Below are positions 23,877 through 37,962 of a stretch of DNA of 64,000 nucleotides, piece by piece. Under the pieces are notes generated by a model. It did no database searches, was not told the origin of the DNA, and saw only the letters and a list, made by a program, of their open reading frames with translations. The position numbers and the translations under genes are program-made. Numbering within the stretch: position 1 is the first letter of the stretch; each line of letters begins with the position of its first letter. This DNA comes from Conexibacter woesei Iso977N (GTDB lineage: Bacteria > Actinomycetota > Thermoleophilia > Solirubrobacterales > Solirubrobacteraceae), in the NCBI RefSeq assembly GCF_000424625.1, contig NZ_AUKG01000002.1, forward strand, positions 868,001 through 932,000. Reading direction: 5' to 3'.

Positions 23877-26624
23877 TCACGCCATCCGGCCGCCTTGGCC
23901 TCCGAGGCGGCCGAACCCGGATTCGAGGTCGCGATAGTAGCGCCGGTACCGGCCCGACTCGGGAGTCTTCCTGACCTCGTCCCAGTTCGCGCCGGCATCC
24001 TGCCGGGGCACCGCGCGCGTCACGTACTTGCCGGACTGCGGGGGAGTGACGGACAGGGGCCTCGCCGCCGTGAGGTCCCATTCGAGGGCGCCAAAGGGCA
24101 GCGCGTAATACGGGGCGCTCGGCTGGCTGTCGACCAGGATCGCGGGCACCACCGCTCGCCGCCGCCACACGCGCTCGACGACCCGATGAGTGCCGTCGCA
24201 GACGACGAACTCGCGGACGGTGCGGTCTTCGTCTCCGTCGTAGAGCGCCTCGCCGAGGTCATCGGCGTGCAACTGCTCGAGGATCGGTGGCGTGACGCTG
24301 ACCGGGATGCCGACGCCGCCCTTGCGGACTCGCGCGAAGCCCCACGGGTTGCCCTCCGCGGCCAACTGCTCGAAGACCGGCAACAGCTCGTCGACGCGGG
24401 CCAGCCCTTTGCTCAGGACGTACCGCTGCACGGGGCGCAGCCGTCCGAGCGCGTGCTCGGGCTTCAAGTCCTCGAGCCCGATCTCGTCTGCCCTCGCGGC
24501 GGCGAACACGAGGATCGCGTCGCGCTCCTGTCGCCACTTGCCCACGCTCATGCGCCTCAGGTAGACCTGCCGGAACTGCTCGGCCGGGTAAGCGGCGCCT
24601 TCGAGATCCGAGATCTTCGCGAAGGTGACCTTGCTCAGGGCATCGACCGTCGAGAGCCCTGGAACATCCGGGTCTGGCTCGGCGTCGTCGGACCAGCTGA
24701 ACGTTCGCACGATCTCGTACCCGCGCTCGGTCTCGACAGCGCCGCCCAACATGAGCTCCGGGCGCAGCTCGCCGGACTCGAGCTCGGACGCCAGCACCCT
24801 GTCGAGCTGGGACATCACGTCGGCGTTGCGCGCCTTGATCGACGGCACCCCGCGCCACGGTGCCTCCGTCCCGGGCGCGCCGATCGGGAACCACACGGCA
24901 CCTGGTGGCGCCATCTCCGCCTGTGCCCGTGCCGCCTTGTCGGGGTTGGCGACGAGCTCGGCCGTAGGGTCGAAGCGGACGGCGCTTCCGCCGTCGCTCA
25001 AGGCCGTCATGGCGAGCCCTCGTGCCGGCCCGGCGGAGGTCTCGCCATCGCTCGCGCTGTCCAGGTCATGGAACCATGCGATGAGCCTCTTGACATCCCG
25101 CGCTCGCTGATCGTCGTGGTCGGATGACCGCTCGACGAGCGGGAGCAAGGTGACGAAGTGGTAGTCGAACTCCGTGACCACTCCGCTCGTCGGCGAGAAC
25201 TTACGCGTGGTGAAGTTCGCGATCTCGCGGATCTCGTCGGCCCAGACGTCCTCGTCCAACTCGCTGCTGTCGAGGATCCGCTCGAGGGCGTCCTCGAACC
25301 CGACGGCGTGCTCGGCGCGCTCGAGATCCTCGGCGCGTTCGGTGGCCTGGCGGATGACGTCGTCGCGCAAATGGCCGAGCAGGGTGGCCGGGTACTGGAA
25401 GGCAGGGAGTAGCAAGGTGTTCCACTCACCCAGCGGAGAGGCCTGCAGCGGGGAGTGGTTGCTGAGGAGCAGCTCGTACCCACCGCCTTCTCGCGGTCGG
25501 ATGACCACGAGCAACATGTATGACATCGCTTTGACGGCCGGCATGCCGGCGAGCTTCAGATCCTCGGTGCAGAGCTGGACGTAGCCGCTGCCGTCCCAGG
25601 TGTCCTTGATCGCGGCGAGCAGCGCGTCCAGCTCGTCCCTTGCCTCCTGCTTCGTCTCAGGCAATGCCCGCACGGCCGCGATGCGGCTGGTCACATGGCT
25701 GTACAGGCGACGCTCCCCGACGTCGACCCGCGACGCGGATTCGAGCGAGCGGACGATCTGGACGGGCTGCGCCGGCACGTTGTATCCGAGGTCATGGTTG
25801 AACGCGATCTGCGCCTGGCCCTTGACGACGTCAATGCGCACGCGCGCGACGCCTTGCTGGGCGGCACCCGGGTCGAATGGCGGACAGGGCACGATCGATA
25901 CCCCCATGGTCCGCTGCCTGGCGTCCACCGGCGTTCGGCTGACGGTCGCGATCCCGTCGTCAGCGCCGGAACCAGCCAGCAGGACGACCGACGCACGCAG
26001 CCGCTCCCAGCGCTCGGTGTCCGTGGACCCGTCCGTGGCGATACCGATCACGTAGAGCGGCGCGGTGCTGCTCGTCTCCATGGCGAGCTTGCGCACCATC
26101 GCTTGAGCCGCGTCGACGTCGCTTTGAGCTCCCAGCGCGATGAGCGCGACGTACGCGTAGGCGTGACCCGCCATGTCGTCGGGTGCCGGGTCGTTCGGAT
26201 GGGTGATGCCGAAGGCCGCGGTGACGATCGACCCCTGCCCGTCGTTGCGTGTGAACGCCTGCAGCAGCTTCGACGGGCGGGAGGTCGGCGCGCACACGAT
26301 CGGCGTGTCTTGGCTATCGGGGATGCGACGTAGCGTCTCCGTCCACAGGCCGTCCGGATCGATGGCATCGTCACTGGCCTCGACTGCAGGGTCGCCGAGC
26401 ACGAGGAGGATCTGCGACATCTGCGCCCGTAGCGGTTCGAGCAGCTTGCGGGCGCGATCGGTCGTCCGCTGGCCGAGACCCTCCCTGCTTTCTCCTTGCC
26501 GGGCAACGGCAAGAGGCTCAACGATGACCTCCACGTCGACGACGGGCCCGGTGAACGTCGGCACGTGCGCGGTGATGTCGAAGTCCGTTGCCTGGTTGGT
26601 GGCGTAGGCGATCAGGGGGTCCAC
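23877..26624 (-). CDS. Large protein with C-terminal ParB-like domain, last gene of the seven-gene operon
   Basis: A 915-residue protein of unknown family. The N-terminal half is alpha/beta (ILLVLGDPAV, LYVIGIATDG) and the middle has YMLLVVIRPREGG and YELLLSNHS. Residues about 686-915 repeat the domain of the 213-residue protein encoded three genes upstream in the operon: VQRYVLS, CDGTHRV (Asp810-Gly-Thr-His-Arg814), PYYALPFG, and a tail YRRYYRDLESGF. DGxHR recalls the ParB/sulfiredoxin fold. GTG 26624 is chosen because GAGGAGC lies about ten bases before it; GTG 26744 would overlap the HAD gene and adds non-coding-looking sequence. Confidence 0.6.
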   Translation of the reverse strand: MDPLIAYATNQATDFDITAHVPTFTGPVVDVEVIVEPLAVARQGESREGLGQRTTDRARKLLEPLRAQMSQILLVLGDPAVEASDDAIDPDGLWTETLRRIPDSQDTPIVCAPTSRPSKLLQAFTRNDGQGSIVTAAFGITHPNDPAPDDMAGHAYAYVALIALGAQSDVDAAQAMVRKLAMETSSTAPLYVIGIATDGSTDTERWERLRASVVLLAGSGADDGIATVSRTPVDARQRTMGVSIVPCPPFDPGAAQQGVARVRIDVVKGQAQIAFNHDLGYNVPAQPVQIVRSLESASRVDVGERRLYSHVTSRIAAVRALPETKQEARDELDALLAAIKDTWDGSGYVQLCTEDLKLAGMPAVKAMSYMLLVVIRPREGGGYELLLSNHSPLQASPLGEWNTLLLPAFQYPATLLGHLRDDVIRQATERAEDLERAEHAVGFEDALERILDSSELDEDVWADEIREIANFTTRKFSPTSGVVTEFDYHFVTLLPLVERSSDHDDQRARDVKRLIAWFHDLDSASDGETSAGPARGLAMTALSDGGSAVRFDPTAELVANPDKAARAQAEMAPPGAVWFPIGAPGTEAPWRGVPSIKARNADVMSQLDRVLASELESGELRPELMLGGAVETERGYEIVRTFSWSDDAEPDPDVPGLSTVDALSKVTFAKISDLEGAAYPAEQFRQVYLRRMSVGKWRQERDAILVFAAARADEIGLEDLKPEHALGRLRPVQRYVLSKGLARVDELLPVFEQLAAEGNPWGFARVRKGGVGIPVSVTPPILEQLHADDLGEALYDGDEDRTVREFVVCDGTHRVVERVWRRRAVVPAILVDSQPSAPYYALPFGALEWDLTAARPLSVTPPQSGKYVTRAVPRQDAGANWDEVRKTPESGRYRRYYRDLESGFGRLGGQGGRMA

Positions 26625-26736
26625 GTGCTCGGTGCTCCTCGAGGTGCGCGCGTTGGCGGTGTCAGAGATGCTCAGCGATCGGCAGGAATGCGCGATGCGC
26701 GCGACCCTACCGGTCTGCGACGCTTGCGACCACAGT

Positions 26737-27411
26737 TCAGACACCGAGTGCTGAGGCCAGCTCCGACAGATCAGCGACGACCAGCACGCCGGGAGGCTCA
26801 GTGCCCTCCGGATCTCGCCTCACCCAGGCTGCCTGCATCCCCGCGGCGAGCGCTCCGTGGACGTCCTTGGCAAGGTCGTTACCCGCGTGGAGCACCGACG
26901 ACGGCGGGAGGTCCAGAGCCGTGCACGCGGCGCGGAAGATCCGCGGGTCCGGCTTTGAGACGCCGACGTCTCGGCTGGTGATCACCCCGTCGAACCAGCC
27001 CGCGACGCCGATGCGCTCCACGTCAGAGGCCCCTTCGGTCAGCGCGAGGATCCGGTAACGCTCACCGATGCGGCCCAGAGCGGATTCGGCCTCCGGGAAC
27101 GGCACGACGTGCTGCCGCGCGTCGTCTGTCGCCTGGAGTGCCGGGCCGGCGAGGTCAGGGTCGTGGCCACAGGCCGCGAGCTCCGCCCGGAGGCCGTCGG
27201 GGGTGAGCCACCGCTGGACATCGGAGGACGCCTGTCGCGTCTCCCGCGGCGCGGTCAGCGCAGCGGAAAGGGCCGTTGGGTCGAAGGCCTCGGCCGCGCG
27301 GGGTCCGGCTTCCGCGAGGAACGCCTTCAGTGTCTCGGCGATGTGCATCGCGATCGGTGCGTAGGGCCAGATCGTGTCGTCGAGATCGACGGTGACGGCT
27401 TGGACGTCCAT
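26737..27411 (-). CDS. HAD-superfamily hydrolase with canonical motif
   Basis: A 224-residue haloacid dehalogenase-like phosphatase. Motif I is VDLDDT with nucleophile Asp9 and acid Asp11, motif II lies in ILALTEG, Lys in VSKPDPRIF, and motif IV in HAGNDLAKD. A helical cap lies between motifs I and II. Such enzymes dephosphorylate nucleotides or sugars. The start overlaps the stop of the preceding HAD gene (TGATG); GTG 27414 is the alternative start. Confidence 0.85.
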   Translation of the reverse strand: MDVQAVTVDLDDTIWPYAPIAMHIAETLKAFLAEAGPRAAEAFDPTALSAALTAPRETRQASSDVQRWLTPDGLRAELAACGHDPDLAGPALQATDDARQHVVPFPEAESALGRIGERYRILALTEGASDVERIGVAGWFDGVITSRDVGVSKPDPRIFRAACTALDLPPSSVLHAGNDLAKDVHGALAAGMQAAWVRRDPEGTEPPGVLVVADLSELASALGV

Positions 27412-28106
27412 CACATGCTGAAGATCGCTTCGACGTCGACCTCGGCGATTGACCGGGACGCCGCCGTGGGCCGAGGCAGGCTCCCGTTGAGAACACGGAC
27501 GAGGTCCGAGGCCTCGCGTTGCGGTCGATGGAGGAGCCAGAGTGTCCGCACACCTTGTGCGATCGCGGGCGCGATGTCCTCCGCGTAAGAGTCCCCGACC
27601 ATGAGCGTGGCGTCGGCAGTCATGCCCGATCGTCGCAGGATCGTTGCGACGGGCACCGTCGATGGCTTGGCGACGCCCTCGCGGAACGAGAAGAACTGCA
27701 ACTCGGCAGGGATCTCGCGATCGAAGAATTCGCCGAACAGCGAGCGGACCGACTCGAGGTACGGCGCCCAGATGTTCGAGATCAGCGCCAGCACCACCCC
27801 GTCCTCCCGGAGCCTGTTCAGGGTGGCCAGCGCGCCGTCGAGGGCTTGCGCCTCCTTCGTCTGCGCGGTCCAGACCTCCGTGACGACGTTCGCCGCATCC
27901 GCCCGGTCTGCTCCAGCTGCGGCGAGGAACTCGGTCACTTCGGCCGGCGTCTCGAAACGACTGGTCATGAGGACATCGCGCAGGGCCTGTCGCGTCTCAC
28001 GCGTGAGGGCAAGGCGATCGGCGATCCGCGACCACGGTCCCCGCGACGGCCCAGTTACGAGCGTCGCGCCGATGTCGAAGATCACGAGCCGGTCGAGATG
28101 GGGCAT
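27411..28106 (-). CDS. HAD-superfamily hydrolase with DxG motif
   Basis: A 231-residue HAD-like protein. Motif I reads FDIGATL, so nucleophile Asp11 is present but the usual second aspartate is Gly13, as in DxG-type HAD proteins. The lysine in VAKPSTVPV and motif IV MVGDSYAEDI are present. It may still be a phosphatase with altered proton donation, or use another chemistry. Starts ten bases after the stop of the ParB-like gene and is followed by the second HAD gene with stop-start overlap. Confidence 0.8.
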   Translation of the reverse strand: MPHLDRLVIFDIGATLVTGPSRGPWSRIADRLALTRETRQALRDVLMTSRFETPAEVTEFLAAAGADRADAANVVTEVWTAQTKEAQALDGALATLNRLREDGVVLALISNIWAPYLESVRSLFGEFFDREIPAELQFFSFREGVAKPSTVPVATILRRSGMTADATLMVGDSYAEDIAPAIAQGVRTLWLLHRPQREASDLVRVLNGSLPRPTAASRSIAEVDVEAIFSM

Positions 28107-28116
28107 CCCGGCGGTG

Positions 28117-28758
28117 TCAGGCGCTGAGATGGCTGGGGTTCGAGCGCTTGCGCTGTGCCTGCACGCCGGGGAACAGGGCGTTGAAGTCGCGGAACAGAGC
28201 CTTGTAGTTGTCAGGGTTCCGGTAGGTCTTCTTCTCGAACCCGTCCGGCAGCTCATCGAGCGGCGTGACATCGGCCCATCCGTTGGGAAGGGCGAGGGCG
28301 TAGTACGGGTACTCGACCGGGACATCGAGCACGCGCACGATCGAGATCGGGCTCCCAACAGACCGGGCGGCCCAGATGCGGTGCATGCCGTCATTGGCGA
28401 GCAGGCATGTTCGGCCGTCGGGCTCGTGCGACTCCTCGGCGATCGGAGGCAGCAGCGGGATCACGACGTCCGGGTCGTCGGACGTCCGGATGAGCAGGGC
28501 GCCGTCCAGGGCGAACAGGTCGATGCTTAGCTCGACCAGGGCCGACCGGATCTCCAAGATCTTGTCGACCGTGTCGTTGAGCACGTAGCGTTGCGCCGGC
28601 ACGACCGCTTCGGGATCAAAACCCGGAACCAGCTCGATCCGGGACCTGGCGTACACCTCGGGCTCGCCGAGGCCGCGTAGGCGCGTCCGGCGCAGTTTCG
28701 CCAGCAGGGTCGCCTCGTCGATGGTGTCCACGGACAGGATGCTCAGCGGGTCGCTCAT
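28117..28758 (-). CDS. ParB-like domain protein
   Basis: A 213-residue single-domain protein. Residues 123-127 are DGMHR inside LLANDGMHRIWAARSVG, the pattern of the ParB/sulfiredoxin fold (DGxHR, then a small helix and a VxV strand). Other landmarks are AQRYVL (55-60), PYYALALPNGW (151-161) and NYKALFRDFNALFPG (184-198). The same landmarks, with identical spacing from DGxHR to PYY, recur in the C-terminus of the 915-residue protein encoded at the end of the operon. ParB-like domains bind or hydrolyse nucleotides or cut DNA; which applies here is unknown. It overlaps the thymidylate synthase-like gene by ATGA. Confidence 0.7.
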   Translation of the reverse strand: MSDPLSILSVDTIDEATLLAKLRRTRLRGLGEPEVYARSRIELVPGFDPEAVVPAQRYVLNDTVDKILEIRSALVELSIDLFALDGALLIRTSDDPDVVIPLLPPIAEESHEPDGRTCLLANDGMHRIWAARSVGSPISIVRVLDVPVEYPYYALALPNGWADVTPLDELPDGFEKKTYRNPDNYKALFRDFNALFPGVQAQRKRSNPSHLSA

Positions 28759-30314
28759 CGCCCCTCCTCGCGACCGTCGGTCACCGTTCGGAGCTCTTGT
28801 TCTGCCAGCGTCAGCTCACGTGCGATCCATAGGGCATGCGAGACCTGGCTGATGGCCATATCGCCGCTGATCTTCTGCTGGATCTTCAAGCCGCTTCTCT
28901 CTTCGTAGCGTTTGATGAGGTTGCCTGCGTAATAATGCTCAGCAATCACGACCCCACGCAGGGTGTCGGCGGTGACGACGAAGTGCCCGTTCGGATCCTC
29001 TCGGATCGAGGACTTGCGGTTGTCGTGGTCGACGTCGTCGTCACGTTGCCAGGATCGCTCGAGCTCCATGGCCGGGCCGTAACGGCTGCTGCTCGGATCG
29101 ATCCCGAGCAACTGGCTGATGACGGTCATCGGTCCGGGTGCGAGGTCCGTGTTGACGGCGACATGATCGAGGATCGCCATGAGCCCGTACACGTTCTGGA
29201 GCCACGCGGTGAGGAGGTTGTGCACTCTATAGGTGGCCGTGAGCGCAAGCCGATCACCGGTCTCACGGAACTGCAGGCTCACGAGGCACGGAGTTGCTGC
29301 ACCGGGGGGCGCGCCAACTCCTGCCAGGTCGCGTGTGTTGTCCCACAAGGACAGATACGCACCACGCGTCCGCGGCTGCTTCCGCAGCTTCTCGATGATG
29401 GTGTGAAGCATGTCGGCCCCCGCGCCCTGGTCGAAATGCGCTCGCAGCCGGTTTCCGTAGTTGTATGAGATGTCGACCGGAAGCTCGGGGTCGAGGATCG
29501 CCTCTTGGTACCTCTGGAACTGCTCGAGGTCGAAGCCGTACCGCGCGAGGGCTTCGCGCGAGTGCTCCCGCGGATCTGTGATCACCGTTTTGACGTTGTG
29601 CAGTTCCAGACGCGTGCTCTCGTCGGCAAGGGTCGCCACACGACCGAAGCGCATCGTCCGGACGACGAGCTCTTCCCACGCCGCGAGGGGCGTGGCGCGG
29701 ATGACCTGATGTCCCGCGATCTCGGAAGGGCGTTGCTCGCGGGGGTCCGGGTCGGGGATGTCCACCAGCACGCGTTCTCCGAGATCGTCCGGATCCGCTC
29801 GGGGCAACGTGTCGAGAAGCCCGACCACACGTTCCATCGCGCCGTCATCCGACGGCTTCCCGGCGTATGTGAAGGTGAGACGTTCCTGCAGCGGCGTCAC
29901 GTCGAGACCATTGCCGCGCCGGAAGTAGCGCGATGTTCCTGGGATGCGCAGCATCGGCGCCCCGAGGAGCGTCGTCTCTTCCAAGCCGTGTGCAAGGAGC
30001 GCCTCGATCTCGGCGCAGCTGTCTTGCCCGAGCTTCCGTCCGAAGGCGATCAAGTGACGCACCTGGGGGTTGTACAGCAGGTTGGACAGCATCCCGTGTA
30101 GGCCGTCGCCGTACAGGTTGGCCACCGTGGCGACGCGGCTGCGTGCCGGGTCCAGAACCGCAGGTGCCTCGCGAGCAAGCTTCTTGCGAACGTGCTCGTA
30201 GGGCGACCAAAGCAGGATCAGGCCGACATCGCCCATGGGGTTGACGTCGTGCAAACGATCAGCGTAGTAGCGCGCTTCCCATGTGGGCGCGGCGGTGGTG
30301 ATGGCCTTTCTCAT
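28755..30314 (-). CDS. Thymidylate synthase-fold protein with MtrA/DUF4346-like N-terminal domain
   Basis: A 519-residue protein. Residues about 25-150 resemble the MtrA/DUF4346 domain (ATVANLYG, YNPQVRHLIAFGRKLGQDS, then ALLAHGLEE, LRIPG), without the cobamide-binding histidine of MtrA. Residues about 280-405 follow the thymidylate synthase core: YGNRLRAHF, QPRTRGAYLSLWD, nucleophile Cys343 in TPCLVSLQF, Arg363 in TYRVHN and Asn374 in WLQN. The usual RSxD reads RVHN. A related base-methylating or hydroxymethylating activity on a pyrimidine nucleotide is likely. ATG 30314 overlaps the previous stop by ATGA. Confidence 0.72.
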   Translation of the reverse strand: MRKAITTAAPTWEARYYADRLHDVNPMGDVGLILLWSPYEHVRKKLAREAPAVLDPARSRVATVANLYGDGLHGMLSNLLYNPQVRHLIAFGRKLGQDSCAEIEALLAHGLEETTLLGAPMLRIPGTSRYFRRGNGLDVTPLQERLTFTYAGKPSDDGAMERVVGLLDTLPRADPDDLGERVLVDIPDPDPREQRPSEIAGHQVIRATPLAAWEELVVRTMRFGRVATLADESTRLELHNVKTVITDPREHSREALARYGFDLEQFQRYQEAILDPELPVDISYNYGNRLRAHFDQGAGADMLHTIIEKLRKQPRTRGAYLSLWDNTRDLAGVGAPPGAATPCLVSLQFRETGDRLALTATYRVHNLLTAWLQNVYGLMAILDHVAVNTDLAPGPMTVISQLLGIDPSSSRYGPAMELERSWQRDDDVDHDNRKSSIREDPNGHFVVTADTLRGVVIAEHYYAGNLIKRYEERSGLKIQQKISGDMAISQVSHALWIARELTLAEQELRTVTDGREEGR

Positions 30315-30895
30315 GCGGTCGTCCAAGGCATGACATGGCGCAGGGCCAGGAGCGCCTCGCGAGGGCCGAGGAGCCAGAACCCGCCGCCTGCCTGTCCGAC
30401 GAGATCGACGAAGTCGTCCACGCGCATGCGGGACGGGAGCGCAACTTGCCCGACGGGGTCTCGAAGAAGGACTGCGCGATCCTCGAGGCCATCCACGGAG
30501 ACCACGTGGCGTAGCACGTCCGAGCGAGAGGAGAAGCGTGAGACGTCCATGCCGGCCCCGATGTCGACACCGGCGTCCATGGCCTCCGCGAGGAAGGCCG
30601 CATGGCTGTCCATCGCGACCACGTCGACCGGTGCGTACCGGAAGGCGAGGTCGGGATCACGTGCTTGGAGGTAGGCGGGGAGGAGGCGCTCGGCGTCGCG
30701 GGGGCGCACTCCGACATGACTCGCCGCCGTGCTGACCGCAAGCCCCCAGGGGTTTGGTGTCGCGCGATCAGGCAGGTGCGTCTCCAGGTGGCGGGCCAGC
30801 GCGCTCGGATCGCCACCTGAGAGACCGCGCCGTTCCATGGCGGTCCAGACCCATGCGGTCACGCACGTCTCGCTCGGCCAGTCCACGACGACCAT
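30311..30895 (-). CDS. C39-like papain-fold protein
   Basis: A 194-residue protein with no clear family name. Spacing of Cys11 (SETCVTAW), His130 (LRHVVSVDG) and Asp146 (LRDPVG), plus a C-terminal MRVDDFVDLV and GGGFWLLG, fits a C39-peptidase or BtrH-like papain fold: an N-terminal Cys helix, then H-V-V-S-V-D and a D-P turn. A peptidase or acyltransferase role is inference. The start is at ATG 30895, one base after the TAG of the methyltransferase gene (TAGCATG), and the end overlaps the thymidylate synthase-like gene. Confidence 0.5.
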   Translation of the reverse strand: MVVVDWPSETCVTAWVWTAMERRGLSGGDPSALARHLETHLPDRATPNPWGLAVSTAASHVGVRPRDAERLLPAYLQARDPDLAFRYAPVDVVAMDSHAAFLAEAMDAGVDIGAGMDVSRFSSRSDVLRHVVSVDGLEDRAVLLRDPVGQVALPSRMRVDDFVDLVGQAGGGFWLLGPREALLALRHVMPWTTA

Positions 30896-30896
30896 G

Positions 30897-31595
30897 CTAT
30901 TGCGCTGCTCGGCGCCGCCAGATCGTGGCCATGGTGCGCCGAACGGCCGGCGCTCCGTGCATCTCGCCGGGGCGTTCCTTGCGCCAGACCATCTCGAGTT
31001 GGAGGCAGTCAGCGACATCTTCCATGAGCTCTCGCGCCGAGAAGAGAACACTCCCGACGTCGAGCGCCGGATCGATCACCGCGTGTGGACCCGCCGTGTC
31101 TGAGGGGTGAGACGGGCAAGCTCCGTAGTAGTCGTCGTCCGGTTCCGCAACGGATATGAGGACCCGTCCGGTCGCCTTGAGGACTCGCGACATCTCCGCG
31201 CGGTAGGCGCGTCGCGTCGACGGCTCCACCTGGTGCTTGTACACGAAGGTGTCAACGATGAAGTCGATGCTGCCTGACGCGACCGGCAAGCCGTCGGTCA
31301 GATCGTGGAGGAGGAGCTCAGGCTGCTCGGGTCGACCGGCGAACCGTTGGCGCGCTCTCTCGATCGCGACCTCGGAGCTATCGAAGGCCGTCATCTCGAA
31401 GCCCCGCGAGACGAGGTGAGCCGTGTTACGTCCCGTGCCGCATCCGACATCAAGACCGCGGGCACCAATGGCCGGCGCTCTGTCGAGACGTGACCAGTTG
31501 TCGAGCGCCCAGACGAGCGCGCCCGATGGGCTCTCACGTACGCTCGACGGGACGCCGCCTCGCTGGTACTCGGGGTCCCACAGGCTCGTCTTCAT
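30897..31595 (-). CDS. Class I SAM-dependent methyltransferase
   Basis: A 232-residue Rossmann methyltransferase. SAM binding is shown by LDVGCGTGRNT (residues about 48-58), the acidic end of strand 2 in AFDSS and DFIVDTFV further on. It lacks the NPPY or DPPY motif of DNA adenine methyltransferases, so a small molecule or modified nucleotide is the likelier substrate. It is the first gene of the operon. ATG 31595 has GAGG six bases before it; ATG 31607 is an alternative. Confidence 0.85.
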   Translation of the reverse strand: MKTSLWDPEYQRGGVPSSVRESPSGALVWALDNWSRLDRAPAIGARGLDVGCGTGRNTAHLVSRGFEMTAFDSSEVAIERARQRFAGRPEQPELLLHDLTDGLPVASGSIDFIVDTFVYKHQVEPSTRRAYRAEMSRVLKATGRVLISVAEPDDDYYGACPSHPSDTAGPHAVIDPALDVGSVLFSARELMEDVADCLQLEMVWRKERPGEMHGAPAVRRTMATIWRRRAAQ

Positions 31596-31986
31596 CGATC
31601 GCCTCATCGTCGGAACGGACCCTGGCCGCCGAGTCCAAGGTGTGCCGAAGAGGATCCCGCGTGAGGCAGTCATGGACAAGGGCGCTCGCTGCACGGCCAC
31701 CGTCCCACCCCGCTATTTCGGCGTTGTGACTGCTGCGCGGTCGACCGCCGCGGAGGGCGAGCGTGGTGGCGAGCGGAACGCGCTTCTATGTCGTGACGGG
31801 GCTACACGCCGCTGGTGGTCCGCGACGGCCGGCTCCGGAACCGGTCAGCGGACCGCGGCAGAGTGGTTCTCACGTCTTCCTCGTAGGATCGCGGCGAGTG
31901 GGCACGCCACTCGTGGTGGAGTGCCCTGTTGTGGGCGCCAGGAGGTGCTCACCAGCACTCCGATCGAGCATCCCAGGGACGGCCTC
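31596..31986. promoter_or_regulatory. Divergent intergenic region between the methyltransferase and hsdM
   Basis: This 391-base stretch has no gene I can support; frames running through it are proline- and arginine-rich without family features. It must hold promoters for the minus-strand operon and for hsdMSR. An imperfect inverted repeat (GGGCACGCCACTC ... GAGTGCCC, about 31898-31926) could be a hairpin or operator. Confidence 0.4.
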
Positions 31987-33567
31987 ATGACGAACAACAG
32001 CACCGGCGAGAACCCCAACGGCGCGGCTCTCTTCGAGGCGGCCAACAAGCTGCGCGGCAGCGTCGAGTCCGCCGAGTACAAGCACCTGGTTCTCGGCCTG
32101 ATCTTCCTGAAGTACATCTCCGACACGTTCACACTCCGTCGCGAACAGCTCCAGGCTGAGCTGGCCGACCCCGACAGCGAGCTCTACACCGAGGACGTCG
32201 CCGAGCGCAAGGAGGTCTTGGAAGACCGCGACGAGTACGTCGCCGAGAACGTCTTCTGGGTCCCTGAGGATGCCCGCTGGGAGAAGCTCCTCGCCGCCGC
32301 CCAGCAGCCTGACATCGCCCGACGCATCGACGACGCGCTGGAGGCGATCGAGAACAAGAACCCGCGCCTGCGGAACGTGCTGCCACGTATCTACACGCGC
32401 GCGCCCCTCTCGGCCGAGCTCATGGGCTCTCTCCTCCAGACGATCGCCAAGATCGGCTTCGGCAAGGGCGCGAAGGAGGCGCGGGACATCCTCGGCCGTA
32501 CCTACGAGTACTTCATCAAGGAGTTCGCCCGCTCCGAGGGTCACCGTGGCGGTGAGTTCTTCACGCCCGGTCCGGTGGCGCGTCTGCTCGTTGAGATGCT
32601 CCAGCCGTTCCAGGGACGTGTCCTCGACCCCGCCTGTGGTTCTTGCGGCCTGTTCGTGCAGTCGGGCCGCTTCATCGAGGCTCACGGCGGCAACCCCGAC
32701 ATGATCTCCATCTACGGTCAGGAGCGGAACCAGGCCACCTGGCGCATCGGGCTCATGAACCTCGCCATCCATGGCCTCGCCGGCGAAGTCCGGTACACCG
32801 AGGCCGGCTCGCTGCTCGACGATGCCTTCCCATCGCTGAAGGCGGACTACGTCATGGCGAACCCGCCGTTCAACCAGAGGGAGTGGTCCACGCCTGCGAT
32901 CGTGGACGACGTGCGTTGGGCTCACGGCATGCCACCGGCTGGGAACGCCAACTACGCGTGGATCCAGCACTTCGTCTCTCACCTCGCTCCGGATGGGCGC
33001 GCGGGCTTCGTCATGGCGAACGGTTCGCTGACCAGCGCCGTCGGCGGGGAGAGCGCCATTCGAACTTCGCTGCTCCGCTCGGATCTTGTGGACTGCGTGG
33101 TGGCCTTGCCAGCGCAGCTCTTCTACACCACGGGGATCCCTGTGTGTCTTTGGTTCATCGACCGTGACAAGACGTCTGCGGGCGAGCGAGACCGACGTGG
33201 CGAGATGCTGTTCGTCGACGCTCGTCAGATGGGCAGCAAGATCAGCCGGACGCAGATCGAGCTCACGACGGACGAGCTCGACCGGGTGGTGTCCGTCTAC
33301 CACGCATGGCGGGGACAGCCCGGTGCGGCTCCCTACGTCGACGAAGCCGGGTTCTGCCGAGCTGTGTCACTCGATGACGTAGAAGCCGCAGGCTTCGCAC
33401 TCACGCCGGGCCGTTACGTTGGTGCACCTGAGGCCGAAGAGGAGGCAATTGCGTTCGAGGAGCGCATGGCGACGCTGGTAGATCAGCTCGCTGATGACCT
33501 CGCCGTCAACGACCGGTTGGCCACCGCTGTCCGAGAAGCGCTTGCGAAGGTCGGGCATGACGTCTGA
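31987..33567 (+). CDS. hsdM: Type I restriction-modification methyltransferase subunit HsdM
   Basis: A 526-residue N6-adenine methyltransferase subunit. The N-terminal helical domain has VLGLIFLKYISD; the catalytic domain has SAM motif LDPACGSCG and the adenine-site motif NPPF in ADYVMANPPFNQ. Motif I has Cys where most HsdM have Gly. With HsdS it methylates the recognition site; with HsdR it forms the restriction enzyme. ATG 31987 is the start of the conserved N-terminus. Its end overlaps hsdS by 11 bases. Confidence 0.95.
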   Translation: MTNNSTGENPNGAALFEAANKLRGSVESAEYKHLVLGLIFLKYISDTFTLRREQLQAELADPDSELYTEDVAERKEVLEDRDEYVAENVFWVPEDARWEKLLAAAQQPDIARRIDDALEAIENKNPRLRNVLPRIYTRAPLSAELMGSLLQTIAKIGFGKGAKEARDILGRTYEYFIKEFARSEGHRGGEFFTPGPVARLLVEMLQPFQGRVLDPACGSCGLFVQSGRFIEAHGGNPDMISIYGQERNQATWRIGLMNLAIHGLAGEVRYTEAGSLLDDAFPSLKADYVMANPPFNQREWSTPAIVDDVRWAHGMPPAGNANYAWIQHFVSHLAPDGRAGFVMANGSLTSAVGGESAIRTSLLRSDLVDCVVALPAQLFYTTGIPVCLWFIDRDKTSAGERDRRGEMLFVDARQMGSKISRTQIELTTDELDRVVSVYHAWRGQPGAAPYVDEAGFCRAVSLDDVEAAGFALTPGRYVGAPEAEEEAIAFEERMATLVDQLADDLAVNDRLATAVREALAKVGHDV

Positions 33568-34804
33568 TCAATCGCCGCCGCCGGGTTGGAGGCTTCATCG
33601 TCTGGGAGACGTCGCGGAGATCTTCGATGGGCCTCACGCGACACCGAAGAAGACCTCGGCCGGCCCTGTGTTCCTAGGCATCTCCTCGCTGACCAACGGT
33701 CGTCTCGACCTGGCGGACCTGGAGCACCTGTCGGAAGAGGACTTCATTCGATGGACGCGGCGAATCACACCGCGCGAGGGGGACGTCGTCTTCTCCTACG
33801 AGACGCGCCTCGGAGAGGCGGCCGCGATCCCCTCAGGGCTCCGATGCTGCCTTGGACGCCGTATGGGACTTCTTCGGCCTCGAGACCAGATCGTTCGACC
33901 CCGCTTTCTGCTGTACGCCTACCTGGGGCCCCAGTTTCAAGAGACCATCCGCGAGCGCACGATCCACGGGAGCACCGTCGATCGCATCCCGCTCAAGGAG
34001 ATGGGGACGTTTCCCATCGCCTTGCCGCCACTTGACGAGCAAGAACGGATCGAGTCGATCCTCGCCGCGCTGGATGCGCGCTACGAGCACAACCACGCGC
34101 TCGGTGCGAGAGAGCTTCATGTTGCTCACCACATCTTCCGCAGCATGTTCGGAGGACGGATCGAAGGCGACGACCAGCTCGGCAACCACGTCACTGTGAC
34201 GAGAGGGCGGTCCTACAAGTCGTCCGAGCTGACCGGCGATGATCGCGCCCTCGTGACGCTCAAGAGCGTTCGCGCCGGGGGCGGCTACAACCCGGACGGA
34301 CTCAAGCCGTATTTAGGTGACTACAGGCCCCCGCAGGTGGTTCAGCCCGGAGAGCTCGTGGTGGCGCATACGGACCTGACCCAGGCGGCAGCGGTCATCG
34401 GAAAGCCTGCCATCGTTCCGGATACGGGATCGTTCAGCGAGCTGGTCGCATCGCTTGATCTGGCGATCGTCCGTCCCAGCGGGCTCTCGGTGAGCATCCC
34501 TTTCCTCTACTTCTTGTTCCTAGAGCCGTCATTTCAGCAACACGCATACGGATACGCGAACGGCAGCACCGTCCTGCACCTTGCCAAGGAAGCCGTCGGT
34601 TCTTTCCCCTTCGTGGCGCCAGATCGGGAACGGCACAGCATGTTCGGCGCACTTGCGACGCCGTTGTTGAACCACAGGGACGCGCTCATCCGAGAAGCGC
34701 GGGGCCTCGCGAAGATACGCGACGTGTTGCTGCCGGCGCTCATGCTGGGGCAGCTCGGCGATGACCGGTCGGCAGCGCTCCTCTACACCACGGCTGCCGG
34801 ATGA
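33557..34804 (+). CDS. hsdS: Type I restriction-modification specificity subunit HsdS
   Basis: A 415-residue specificity subunit with two target-recognition half-domains. Repeated elements are WRLHRLGDVAEIFDGPHAT and LGNHVTVTRGRSYKS at the starts of the two halves, and FPIALPPLDEQERIESIL and SFPFVAPDRERHSMFG at the ends of the halves, followed by the spacer helices. The two halves read different parts of a split DNA site, which cannot be deduced. It overlaps both neighbours (HsdR by ATGA). Confidence 0.92.
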   Translation: MTSDQSPPPGWRLHRLGDVAEIFDGPHATPKKTSAGPVFLGISSLTNGRLDLADLEHLSEEDFIRWTRRITPREGDVVFSYETRLGEAAAIPSGLRCCLGRRMGLLRPRDQIVRPRFLLYAYLGPQFQETIRERTIHGSTVDRIPLKEMGTFPIALPPLDEQERIESILAALDARYEHNHALGARELHVAHHIFRSMFGGRIEGDDQLGNHVTVTRGRSYKSSELTGDDRALVTLKSVRAGGGYNPDGLKPYLGDYRPPQVVQPGELVVAHTDLTQAAAVIGKPAIVPDTGSFSELVASLDLAIVRPSGLSVSIPFLYFLFLEPSFQQHAYGYANGSTVLHLAKEAVGSFPFVAPDRERHSMFGALATPLLNHRDALIREARGLAKIRDVLLPALMLGQLGDDRSAALLYTTAAG

Positions 34805-37800
34805 CGGTCTCCGACCCGTTCATCGTGGACTCTGGTCCTGAGGGGCAGCTCGTCGAGCTGCCGGCCCTGCAGCGCCTCTGTGGGGATGGCGGGGCTCATC
34901 CGGGCGTGGGCTGGACCTACATCCATGGGCCGAGGCTGGCTCCGGACGCCGGCAGCGGTGAGCGGCGCCGGTGGTCGGATGTCGTCCTAGAGGGTCACCT
35001 GCGGCGCGCGATCCAGCGACTCAACCCCGACCTCCCGACACCGGCGGTGCAGCGCGTCATCGAGGAGGTCAAGACGACTGCGTCACCCTCGGTCATCGAG
35101 GACCACCGCGGCTTTCACAGGCTGCTGCTCTCCGGCGTGCCGGTGTCGTACCGCGACGCTGCCGGCGCCGAGCGGCACGCGCACGCGTGGATCGTCGACT
35201 TCGAGGACGTCTCCAAGAACGAGTTCGTCGCGGTCAACCAGCTCACGATCATCGTCGGCGATCACAACCGCCGGCCGGACCTCATCCTGTACGTCAACGG
35301 GCTGCCACTCGGGGAGATCGAGGCGAAGGCCCCGGGGCTCGAAAAACCCTCGGAGGAGGCGGTCAACCAGATCGCCCACTACAGGCACACGATCCCGCCG
35401 CTGTACCGGTTCATCGAGATCGTTGGCGTGACCGATCTCATGAAAGCGGTGGTAGGCACGATCTCCACGCCGGCCGAGCACTTCGCCGAGTGGAAGACGA
35501 TGAGCGAAGACCCGGCCCAGCAGGCGCGACCGCAGCTCGACCTCATGATCGAAGGTGTCTTCCAGACTGGGCGGTTCCTGGAGCTCATACGCGACTTCGT
35601 GCTGTTCGAGACCGACGGCGCCAAGACCTGGAAGGTGATGGCCAAGTACCACCAGGTCCACGCGGTCAACGCGGCAATCGAGTCCGCCGCCGGCGCGATG
35701 ACCTCAGACCACCGCGGTGGGCTGATCTGGCACACGCAAGGCGCCGGCAAGAGCTACACGATGGTCTTCTTCGTCAACAAGCTGCGTCGTGACGAACGCT
35801 TCGACAACCCCACCGTCGTTGCGGTTACCGACCGCACCGATCTCGACAACCAGCTGGCCGACACCTTCACCGCGACGCATCTGGCGCCACAGTGCCAGCA
35901 GGCCGACGAGATCCGCCGCACGCCCAACACGCCGGTCGATGCCAAGACGCTCTACGAGTTGCTGCGCGTGCCGGCCGGCGGGATCGTCTTCACGACGATC
36001 CAGAAGTTCCGGGCACCCAGGGGTGAGGACATGCCGGTTCTTTCGGAGCGATCCAATGTGATCGTCATGGCCGACGAGGCTCACCGGTCCCAGTACGACA
36101 CGTTCGCCGAGAACATCACCCTTGCCCTGCCCAACGCAACACGGATCGGGTTCACCGGCACGCCGATCGAGAAGGGTGATCGCTCGACCCGGATCGTCTT
36201 CGGCGACTACGTCTCCGTCTACCGGATGCGCCAGGCCCAAGAGGACCAGGCCACCGTCCCGATCTTCTACGAGTCGCGCCAGATCGGCCTCACCATCGCC
36301 GACGAGAAAGCCCTCGAGCTCGTCGAGGACGTCCTCGAAGACGAAGAGCAAGCGGCTGCCCAGCAGCTCGTCACGTCTTGGGCCAAGCTCGAGAAGGTCG
36401 TCGGCGCGCCGGATCGTCTGGCCAAGCTCGCCGACGACCTGGCTGCGCACTACCACGCACGTTGCGAGGTCTTGAAGGGCAAGGCCCTGGTCGTCGCCTA
36501 CTCGCGGCGCGTCGCCGCGCAGCTCACCGAGCTTCTGCGGGAGCGGCTCGGGAGCGGGACTGTCGACTGCGTGATCTCTGCGCAGGCAACCGACGATCCC
36601 GAGATCTCGCGCTTCCGGCGCTCCAAGCCGCAGCTCCGCGAGCTGGCCAAGCGTTTTCGAAATCCCGACGATCACCTGCGCGTGGTCGTGGTGAAGGACA
36701 TGTGGCTGACCGGCTTCGATGCCCCGGTGCTGCACACCCTTTACATCGACAAGCCGATGCGCGATCACGGCCTTCTCCAGGCCATCGCGCGCGTCAACCG
36801 GGTGTTCGAGAACAAACCCGGTGGCATGGTCGTCGACTACATCGGCATTGGCGAAGACCTGCGGGCCTCACTGCGCGCGTACGACGATGCCGACCTCGAC
36901 GATCCCGTCGTCCCCGCCGCCAAAGCCGTCGCGCGGCTGTGGGAGAAGTACGAAGTCATCTGCGACCTGCTTCATCCGATGGGCTACCGGCAGGGCGAGC
37001 TCTACCTCGTCTCCGACAAGGGAAAGCTCTTCGTGGATGCCTACAACTACATCTTGGATACCGACGAACGAGCGCAGAGCTTCCTGGACGCCCAGCTCGC
37101 GCTCAACACATGGCACGCGCTCGGTCGCACGCAGCCTGCGGCGCTCGAATTGCGTGACGAGGTCGGGTTCTTCGGCCGTCTCGCCGCAGAGGTCCGCAAG
37201 ATCACGACGCCTGCGGTCCAAGCCAGCAAGGAGGCCGAGCAAGTTGTGCGGCAGTTCATGTCCGACGGCCTTGCAGCCGGCGACGTCGTCGACGTGTTCG
37301 CCTTGGCGGACAAGGATCGACCAGAGATCTCGGTGCTGTCCGACGAGTTCCTGGACTCCATTGCCGTCAAGGCCGGACAGGAGAACATCCAGCGGCGACT
37401 CCTCCAGAAGCTGCTCGATGACGAGCTCAGGGCCCGCCGCCGTGTCAACAACCTCCAGGCCAAGCGGTTCAGCGACGAGGTCGAGGCCGTGCTCCGCCGT
37501 TACGAACAGCGCCAGCTCACAAGCGCCGAGGTCGTCGAGCGGCTCATCGAAATCGCGAAGCGTCTTCGCGATTCTGCTCACCGTCATGGAGAACTTGGGC
37601 TCACCGAAGAAGAAGCTGCCTTCTACGATGCGCTCGCCGGTGGCGTCGAGCACGTCAAAGCCGATCCCGCCCTCCGAGACCTTGCCCATGAGCTCGTCGA
37701 GAGCATCCGCAAGGACCTCTCCGTCGACTGGATGGATCGTGAGGCCACCGAGGCCAAGGTCCGCACCAAGATCAAACGGCTGCTACGACGCAACCGGGAC

Positions 37801-37962
37801 AAGCTTCCCGAGCTCCTGGAGACCGGCAGTAGTTCCACCGGTGGTGACCCCACGGGCCGCGACCGGAGCGTCAGCCACTTCACTCAGCTGGTGCTCGACC
37901 AGGCCAAGGCGATGTATCGGTACTGGCCCGAGGTCGGCGACCGGCTGTTCGACGAGACTTAG
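34801..37962 (+). CDS. hsdR: Type I restriction endonuclease subunit HsdR
   Basis: A 1053-residue motor-nuclease subunit. The PD-(D/E)xK nuclease is RRPDLILYV with GEIEAKAPG. The SF2 helicase motor has HTQGAGKSYT (about residue 312), DEAHRSQYD and TGTPIEKGD, then a second motor domain with MWLTGFDAP and IARVNRVF. A long helical C-terminus contacts HsdM/HsdS. With the other subunits it translocates DNA and cuts far from the site. The full set appears intact, so the system is probably functional. Confidence 0.95.
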   Translation: MTVSDPFIVDSGPEGQLVELPALQRLCGDGGAHPGVGWTYIHGPRLAPDAGSGERRRWSDVVLEGHLRRAIQRLNPDLPTPAVQRVIEEVKTTASPSVIEDHRGFHRLLLSGVPVSYRDAAGAERHAHAWIVDFEDVSKNEFVAVNQLTIIVGDHNRRPDLILYVNGLPLGEIEAKAPGLEKPSEEAVNQIAHYRHTIPPLYRFIEIVGVTDLMKAVVGTISTPAEHFAEWKTMSEDPAQQARPQLDLMIEGVFQTGRFLELIRDFVLFETDGAKTWKVMAKYHQVHAVNAAIESAAGAMTSDHRGGLIWHTQGAGKSYTMVFFVNKLRRDERFDNPTVVAVTDRTDLDNQLADTFTATHLAPQCQQADEIRRTPNTPVDAKTLYELLRVPAGGIVFTTIQKFRAPRGEDMPVLSERSNVIVMADEAHRSQYDTFAENITLALPNATRIGFTGTPIEKGDRSTRIVFGDYVSVYRMRQAQEDQATVPIFYESRQIGLTIADEKALELVEDVLEDEEQAAAQQLVTSWAKLEKVVGAPDRLAKLADDLAAHYHARCEVLKGKALVVAYSRRVAAQLTELLRERLGSGTVDCVISAQATDDPEISRFRRSKPQLRELAKRFRNPDDHLRVVVVKDMWLTGFDAPVLHTLYIDKPMRDHGLLQAIARVNRVFENKPGGMVVDYIGIGEDLRASLRAYDDADLDDPVVPAAKAVARLWEKYEVICDLLHPMGYRQGELYLVSDKGKLFVDAYNYILDTDERAQSFLDAQLALNTWHALGRTQPAALELRDEVGFFGRLAAEVRKITTPAVQASKEAEQVVRQFMSDGLAAGDVVDVFALADKDRPEISVLSDEFLDSIAVKAGQENIQRRLLQKLLDDELRARRRVNNLQAKRFSDEVEAVLRRYEQRQLTSAEVVERLIEIAKRLRDSAHRHGELGLTEEEAAFYDALAGGVEHVKADPALRDLAHELVESIRKDLSVDWMDREATEAKVRTKIKRLLRRNRDKLPELLETGSSSTGGDPTGRDRSVSHFTQLVLDQAKAMYRYWPEVGDRLFDET

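What the first reader, a model, noticed from the sequence alone, without database searches (positions are those of the whole stretch)
28755..30314. Thymidylate synthase fold fused to an MtrA/DUF4346-like domain, with altered active site
The C-terminal half keeps the TS core: YGNRLR, PRTRGAYLSLWD, the nucleophile in TPCLVSLQF and Asn374. The motif that binds the dUMP phosphate and base in TS (RSxD) reads RVHN here, so substrate choice has probably changed. The N-terminal domain resembles MtrA but lacks its cobamide-binding histidine. An enzyme other than plain dTMP synthesis is likely.
Basis: partly seen in the sequence, partly recalled or inferred. Interest (0 to 1): 0.65.

Follow-up and report, generated by a model that had tools for sequence, protein, structure and literature searches.

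The report
Unusual three-domain thymidylate synthase
A bacterial relative of the enzyme that makes the DNA letter T carries two extra domains resembling methane-pathway proteins, and in three other bacterial genomes it is the only detectable enzyme of its kind, so it may be an overlooked way of making thymidylate.

Summary
Architecture: MtrA-like N-domain without the cobamide histidine, short thymidylate-synthase (TS) core, pterin-binding domain (PF14251) at the C-terminus. Residues expected to hold dUMP and start catalysis are kept (R239, R321, C347, R367, N378; 14 of 14). The altered motif is R[ASTV]HN family-wide; the changed Asp is, by published structure, a pterin contact, so the cofactor side has changed, not the base site. 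Partners are conserved: a HAD phosphatase (11 of 14) and a ParB/sulfiredoxin-fold protein (13 of 14). Of 82 Azospirillales genomes, 78 have ThyX or canonical ThyA (never both); the three carrying this fusion have neither, and their operon starts with dCTP deaminase. Best reading: an alternative dTMP synthase, not an enzyme for another product. The window's genome also has ThyX and another ThyA, and its copy is the most deviant, so its present role there is uncertain. No activity is shown; cofactor, reductant and the roles of HAD and ParB are inferred.

The parts
28755..30314 (-). three-domain TS fusion protein (alternative TTG start at 30326)
   Evidence: ORF; PF00303, PF14251, TIGR03283; 13 relatives 39-54% identical
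29802..30242 (-). MtrA-like N-terminal domain (about residues 29-175), cobamide His absent
   Evidence: profile of 11 N-domains vs PDB MtrA 8q3v E=1.1e-5
29115..29684 (-). TS core (residues 215-404)
   Evidence: TIGR03283 105 bits; predicted fold aligns to MilA and ThyA
29286..29288 (-). catalytic Cys347 codon
   Evidence: invariant in 14 of 14 and in all 18 other TS aligned
29217..29228 (-). RVHN (residues 367-370): Arg kept, N370 where ThyA has the pterin-contacting Asp
   Evidence: N370 in 14 of 14 fusions, Asp in 18 of 18 other TS aligned
29193..29195 (-). Asn378 codon, equivalent of the uracil-selecting Asn of ThyA
   Evidence: invariant in all 32 rows
28785..29000 (-). C-terminal pterin-binding domain PF14251 (residues 443-514)
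   Evidence: 43.2 bits, cut-off 29.6; 11 of 11 members scanned
28117..28758 (-). ParB-CE / sulfiredoxin-fold partner
   Evidence: PF24392 92.7 bits; beside the fusion in 13 of 14 loci; model pLDDT 90.5 resembles sulfiredoxin and free serine kinase
27411..28130 (-). HAD phosphatase partner (true start probably near 28105)
   Evidence: PF13419/PF00702; homologue beside the fusion in 11 of 14 loci
26737..27414 (-). second HAD hydrolase of the run; no orthologue of its own seen in relatives
   Evidence: PF00702 56.9 bits; only weak hits
23877..26744 (-). 955-aa protein with C-terminal ParB-CE domain
   Evidence: PF24392 24.7 bits; homologues near the fusion in L053, L055, L077
19571..23872 (+). 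caspase-like / STAND NTPase / WD40 protein, convergent with the run
   Evidence: nSTAND1 and caspase-EACC1 sub-threshold, WD40; kin near the fusion in L053, L055, L077
30311..30898 (-). upstream gene overlapping the fusion start; no family hit, no relative seen
30897..31700 (-). SAM-dependent methyltransferase, upstream
   Evidence: PF13649 63.6 bits; homologue near the fusion in L055, L058, L073

Best explanation
It is an alternative thymidylate synthase: a short TS core that methylates dUMP to dTMP through a Cys347 adduct, flanked by an MtrA-derived N-domain and a pterin-binding C-domain that replace the folate-closing C-terminal part of classical ThyA. Shown by sequence or genome comparison: the architecture, the retained substrate and catalytic residues, the invariant Asp-to-Asn change at the pterin contact, the conserved HAD and ParB/sulfiredoxin-fold partners, and absence of any other recognisable TS in three Azospirillales carriers. 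Inferred: that the product is dTMP, that the C-domain binds the one-carbon pterin, and that HAD and ParB police or feed the pyrimidine nucleotide pool. In the window's genome the gene is one more TS beside ThyX and another ThyA-family TS, and may be under relaxed constraint.
For: R239, R321, C347, R367 and N378 line up with ThyA R21, R126, C146, R166 and N177 (E. coli numbering recalled) in 14 of 14. Azospirillales: 56 of 82 ThyX, 22 of 82 canonical ThyA, 0 both; 3 carriers with neither; 1 genome (G1060) with nothing (p=4.5e-5). In the window's own family, 1 of 7 carriers has ThyX against 126 of 139 non-carriers (p=1.4e-5). dCTP deaminase lies just upstream on the same strand in 4 of 4 alphaproteobacterial loci. 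Nine of 9 actinobacterial carriers hold a TS/DHFR/HIT/nucleotidyltransferase/deaminase cluster, in whole or in part. The Asp replaced by Asn contacts pterin N3 in human TS (PMC6479699 passage).
Against: No assay. The window's genome has ThyX and another ThyA-family TS, as has Actinokineospora. All 9 actinobacterial carriers have another ThyA-family TS, so the ThyX deficit there could be due to that gene; non-carriers G426 and G639 have that cluster without ThyX. The fusion does not sit at the thyX or thyA locus of 15 Azospirillales relatives. The ThyA E58/W80 segment is not recognisable in the fusion (by eye). Drafts may miss genes. The predicted fold scores a little closer to dCMP/CMP-acting TS-fold enzymes (AfhB Z 19.4, MilA 17.8) than to ThyA (16.8).
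Confidence: 0.6

Rival explanations
1. A pyrimidine-nucleotide modifying enzyme with another product (for example hydroxymethylation), serving a conflict or nucleotide-signalling operon with HAD, ParB-CE and the STAND/caspase and 955-aa proteins.
For: The 955-aa ParB-CE protein and a STAND-WD40 protein with caspase- or trypsin-like N-terminus lie near the fusion in 4 of 14 loci. The window genome already has two other TS enzymes. Fold comparison puts AfhB (dCMP hydroxylase) and MilA ahead of ThyA.
Against: The Asn whose change to Asp marks cytosine-acting TS-fold enzymes (recalled) is kept in 14 of 14. Three carriers would then have no TS at all. No PADLOC hit for the fusion or the small ParB. 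Ten of 14 loci show no STAND partner within the stretch held.
Confidence: 0.2
2. The family is a dTMP synthase, but the window's copy is drifting: kept in an operon, reduced or altered in activity, because ThyX and the other ThyA supply dTMP.
For: The window row breaks 11 columns that all other 13 rows share, the most of any row (others 0-9), including H405 to Q and S406 to L, with the longest end branch, 0.94. It is the only one of 7 carriers in its family with ThyX.
Against: The frame is open and the catalytic set intact. Eleven private changes may also be adaptation; L058, a lone lineage, has 9.
Confidence: 0.15

Closest known systems
Methanogen-type thymidylate synthase (TIGR03283)
   Same: short TS core; matches 11 of 11 scanned members, best E 4.3e-32
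   Different: 105 bits, cut-off 174.55; extra MtrA-like and pterin-binding domains; Asn for the pterin-contacting Asp
ThyA (PF00303)
   Same: catalytic Cys, Arg at the phosphate, Asn at the base; PF00303 above cut-off
   Different: Asp to Asn at the pterin contact; N-terminal ELLWFL-type and C-terminal folate-capping parts not recognisable; fused domains
MtrA (tetrahydromethanopterin S-methyltransferase subunit A) and the PF14251 domain
   Same: N-domain matches MtrA structures; C-domain matches the end of a long MtrA model in 11 of 11 and the DHPS-like TIGR00284 matches 5 of 11
   Different: cobamide-binding His missing; a TS core lies between the two
MilA CMP hydroxymethylase and phage AfhB dCMP hydroxylase
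   Same: TS fold; best structural matches (Z 17.8 and 19.4)
   Different: fusion keeps the Asn typical of uracil substrates; sequence match to MilA weak (E=5e-4)
ThyX
   Same: occupies the same functional niche by genome distribution
   Different: unrelated family; no PF02511 match to the fusion

Membership tests
ThyA / PF00303 | Pfam gathering score | tested here: met
   32.3 bits vs 24.3; 10 of 11 members match at E<=0.01
ThyA / PF00303 | catalytic Cys, phosphate Arg, base Asn | tested here: met
   C347, R367, N378 in 14 of 14
ThyA / PF00303 | Asp contacting pterin N3 (RSxD) | tested here: not met
   Asn in 14 of 14; Asp in 18 of 18 other TS aligned
ThyA / PF00303 | converts dUMP to dTMP with methylene-H4folate | not testable with these tools
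   no assay; genome distribution is indirect
TIGR03283 methanogen TS equivalog | curated score cut-off | tested here: not met
   105 vs 174.55 bits
PF14251 PterinBD-DUF4346 | Pfam gathering score | tested here: met
   43.2 vs 29.6; 11 of 11 members match
PF14251 PterinBD-DUF4346 | binds a pterin | not testable with these tools
   name only
MtrA | homologous N-domain | tested here: met
   8q3v E=1.1e-5
MtrA | cobamide-ligand His (role recalled) | tested here: not met
   no aligned His; L061 has SH one position off
CMP/dCMP hydroxymethylase (MilA type) | Asp in place of the base-selecting Asn (recalled) | tested here: not met
   N378 in 14 of 14
Known anti-phage system (PADLOC) | profile match of fusion or ParB partner | tested here: inconclusive
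   no hit at E<=0.1; absence does not exclude a new system
ParB/sulfiredoxin superfamily (partner) | family profile, fold and HR motif | tested here: met
   PF24392 92.7 bits; NDGxHR in 12 of 12 aligned; best structural Z 6.3, modest

The most novel reading that the evidence does not exclude
A third route to thymidylate. The fusion is a sole-sufficient dTMP synthase that takes its methyl group from a pterin handled by MtrA-descended domains rather than from folate held as in ThyA, with a reductant other than dihydrofolate-forming H4folate, and needs its HAD and ParB/sulfiredoxin-fold partners. In some lineages it is coupled to a STAND/caspase death module that could watch the thymidylate supply.
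Probability: 0.22. Interest if true: 0.9.

Novelty: new variant of a known kind. Interest (0 to 1): 0.68.

Why it matters
Bacteria are described as making dTMP with either ThyA or ThyX, usually one or the other (PMC10733785 passage). Carriers of this gene would look like thymine auxotrophs in automated annotation, yet include strain-labelled isolates (Azospirillum isscasi C340-1; Roseomonas genomospecies 6 ATCC 49961). If the fusion is their TS, it fills an annotation gap, shows a cofactor-side remodelling of a classic drug target, and ties methanogenesis-type pterin domains to bacterial DNA-precursor synthesis. One complementation test would go most of the way to settling it.

Tried and rejected
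Close-relative scans with the window protein alone found nothing: genome contigs, viral contigs, plasmids, 296 genomes of the phylum (only itself). The two-row alignment A1 opened the family.

Phage TS hits (13 records, 22-33% of the query) are TS-core matches only and were dropped.

In-situ replacement of thyX/thyA was tested in 15 Azospirillales relatives and not found: no shared flanking genes apart from one isolated hit in L149; the thyA loci L154 and L155 have DHFR beside thyA.

The ThyA-family cluster 'module B' (TS, DHFR, HIT, nucleotidyltransferase, deaminase) was considered as part of the system. It also occurs in all 5 non-carriers looked at for it (L135-L139), so it is an associate, not a core part.

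Literature: full text holds no paper with 'DUF4346' or 'PterinBD', none with thymidylate synthase + tetrahydromethanopterin + MtrA, none for the 5-hydroxycytosine/flavin query. 'Third thymidylate synthase' style phrases gave 32 papers, of which 20 were listed; I read passages of three and none of those passages names such an enzyme. The NTP-dependent conflict paper (PMC7159879, passages) holds neither 'ParB' nor 'thymidylate'. A paper on phosphorothioate systems (PMC10853773, passages) treats ParB-superfamily proteins as possible nucleotide-degrading effectors.

Full report
THE GENE. The ORF at 28755-30314 (minus) is intact. In the window it lies in a tight minus-strand run: methyltransferase 30897-31700, an unassigned gene from about 30898 to 30311, the fusion, ParB-CE 28117-28758, HAD 27411-28130, HAD 26737-27414, and a 955-aa protein 23877-26744; four of the neighbouring pairs overlap by a few bases as listed (domains). 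Pfam finds PF00303 at residues 285-402 (32.3 bits, cut-off 24.3) and PF14251 at 443-514 (43.2, cut-off 29.6). TIGR03283 covers 215-404 with 105 bits, below its equivalog cut-off of 174.55. The window protein alone matches solved structures only weakly, but family profiles match ThyA (E=1.8e-9) and MtrA (8q3v, E=1.1e-5).

THE FAMILY. The query alone found no relatives in genome contigs, viral contigs or plasmids. A methanogen-TS model searched over 399 genomes of the class exposed one orthologue, in G658. An alignment of the two (A1) brought 11 loci from named genomes, and a search of all 146 genomes held of the window's family gave seven full-length carriers (two further matches, G641 and G693, are weak TS-core hits and were left out). 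They come from Solirubrobacterales, Actinokineospora, Phycicoccus, Azospirillum and Roseomonas genomospecies 6, two uncultured Alphaproteobacteria and a Bryobacterales MAG, and are 39-54% identical to the window protein. An A3 search of 296 genomes of G709's phylum gave only G709 itself as a full-length member (four other matches were partial), so the family is sparse.

ACTIVE SITE. In a joint alignment of 14 fusions with 4 canonical ThyA, 6 'module B' ThyA and 8 methanogen-like TS (18 rows that I chose from the 44 that scored), the fusions keep R239, Y290, R321, C347, R367 and N378 in 14 of 14. By position these match E. coli R21, Y94, R126, C146, R166 and N177 (E. coli numbering and roles recalled). 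N370 stands where all 18 others have Asp. In human TS that Asp (218, two after Ser216) lies 2.81 A from the pteridine N3 (PMC6479699, passage), so the change is on the cofactor side. The residue before H369 varies (A in 8, S in 4, T and V in 1 each), so 'RVHN' is not a family signature. Near residue 405, fusions read SHS; the window reads SQL. MAFFT does not place this securely against the ThyA HLY motif.

DOMAINS. The N-domain profile of 11 members aligns to MtrA with its 'GQDLG' stretch over the MtrA stretch holding the cobamide His (that His as ligand is recalled), and no member aligns a His there; L061 has SH one position away. PF14251 matches 11 of 11 scanned members, a long MtrA model's C-terminal part 11 of 11, and a DHPS-like model 5 of 11, which fits a pterin-handling role. 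An AlphaFold model from 11 rows has mean pLDDT 73.7, pTM 0.50. VIA-align places residues 200-435 closest to phage AfhB dCMP hydroxylase (Z 19.4, 200 aligned, 2.9 A) and MilA (17.8, 201 aligned, 2.8 A), then ThyA (16.8, 200 aligned, 3.1 A). The other domains were barely tested there.

PARTNERS. By tblastn a HAD phosphatase homologue lies beside the fusion in 11 of 14 loci, the window included (not L052, L062, L077) and ParB-CE in 13 of 14 (split in two in L054; L061's contig ends after HAD). ParB-CE keeps NDGxHR in 12 of 12 aligned. Its model (pLDDT 90.5) resembles sulfiredoxin (Z 6.3, 96 aligned, 3.5 A) and free serine kinase (5.9, 84 aligned, 2.4 A), a modest match; the likely role is nucleotide or phosphate chemistry (inference). 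The methyltransferase is near the fusion in 4 of 14 loci, the 955-aa protein in 4 of 14, and the STAND-WD40 protein in the same 4 as the latter, with trypsin-like (L077) or caspase-like (window, sub-threshold) N-termini. dCTP deaminase sits just upstream on the same strand in 4 of 4 alphaproteobacterial loci.

GENOME LOGIC. In the order of G712 (82 genomes; the name Azospirillales is my inference from member G713, Azospirillum), PF02511 finds ThyX in 56 and PF00303 finds canonical ThyA (285-433 bits) in 22, with no genome in both lists. G712, G713 and G715, the fusion carriers, are in neither. G1060 has nothing. G713's extra 32-bit hit is a 222-aa TS-like protein beside a radical-SAM-type gene and lacks the usual base Asn (by eye). 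Some non-carriers could hold a fusion too weak for PF00303; that would not change the three. G714 (Bryobacterales) and G717 (UBA2562) also show no ThyX and no other PF00303 hit at E<=1e-5, but are MAGs. In the window's family ThyX is in 127 of 146 genomes and in 1 of 7 carriers. All 9 actinobacterial carriers have another ThyA-family TS at 185-204 bits, within a TS/DHFR/HIT/nucleotidyltransferase/deaminase cluster, found whole or in part beside that TS in all nine (L054 gave no DHFR hit; L134 is cut); the five non-carriers looked at for it have it too (L139 cut). So in Actinobacteria the ThyX deficit may owe to that TS; in the three Azospirillales carriers no such gene was found.

VERDICT. The family most likely makes dTMP with a remodelled cofactor site. 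The window's own copy is its most deviant member (11 private changes at otherwise invariant columns, next highest 9; longest end branch) in a genome with two other TS enzymes, so its present activity is open.

Noticed in passing
31423-37962: Type I restriction-modification genes (M, S, R) on the plus strand, head to head with the run described.
   Followed up: no
L038 6768-8960 (G000:C2 near 1156150): A 730-aa protein in the same genome with a metallophosphoesterase-like N-terminus (by eye) and a divergent TS-like C-terminal stretch (TIGR03283 42 bits; sequence).
   Followed up: partly
L009, L011, L012, L014, L015, L018, L022: Short TS homologues in the same class read AHS[IL]D, with His where TS has the phosphate Arg; perhaps another substrate.
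   Followed up: partly
L017 178-2139 (= L049 7550-9511); L013 511-2133: TS-like domains at the end of 653- and 540-aa frames, apparently other fusions.
   Followed up: no
L056 8379-9284 (-), L057, L059: A conserved protein with no Pfam hit, divergent from the dCTP deaminase, whose GDNPG and HFS stretches recall uracil-DNA glycosylases (recalled motif).
   Followed up: partly
L087 1495-2163 (-): 222-aa TS-like protein next to a radical-SAM-type gene in Azospirillum isscasi; Asp at the base-Asn position by eye.
   Followed up: no
L039 8180-8366 (= L062): Scaffold artefact: an RlmN-like stretch and ten N inside the Patulibacter ortholog.
   Followed up: yes
L130, L135-L138 and others: A strongly conserved five-gene cluster (divergent ThyA, DHFR, HIT, cytidylyltransferase-like, deaminase) in Solirubrobacterales and two other actinobacteria.
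   Followed up: partly
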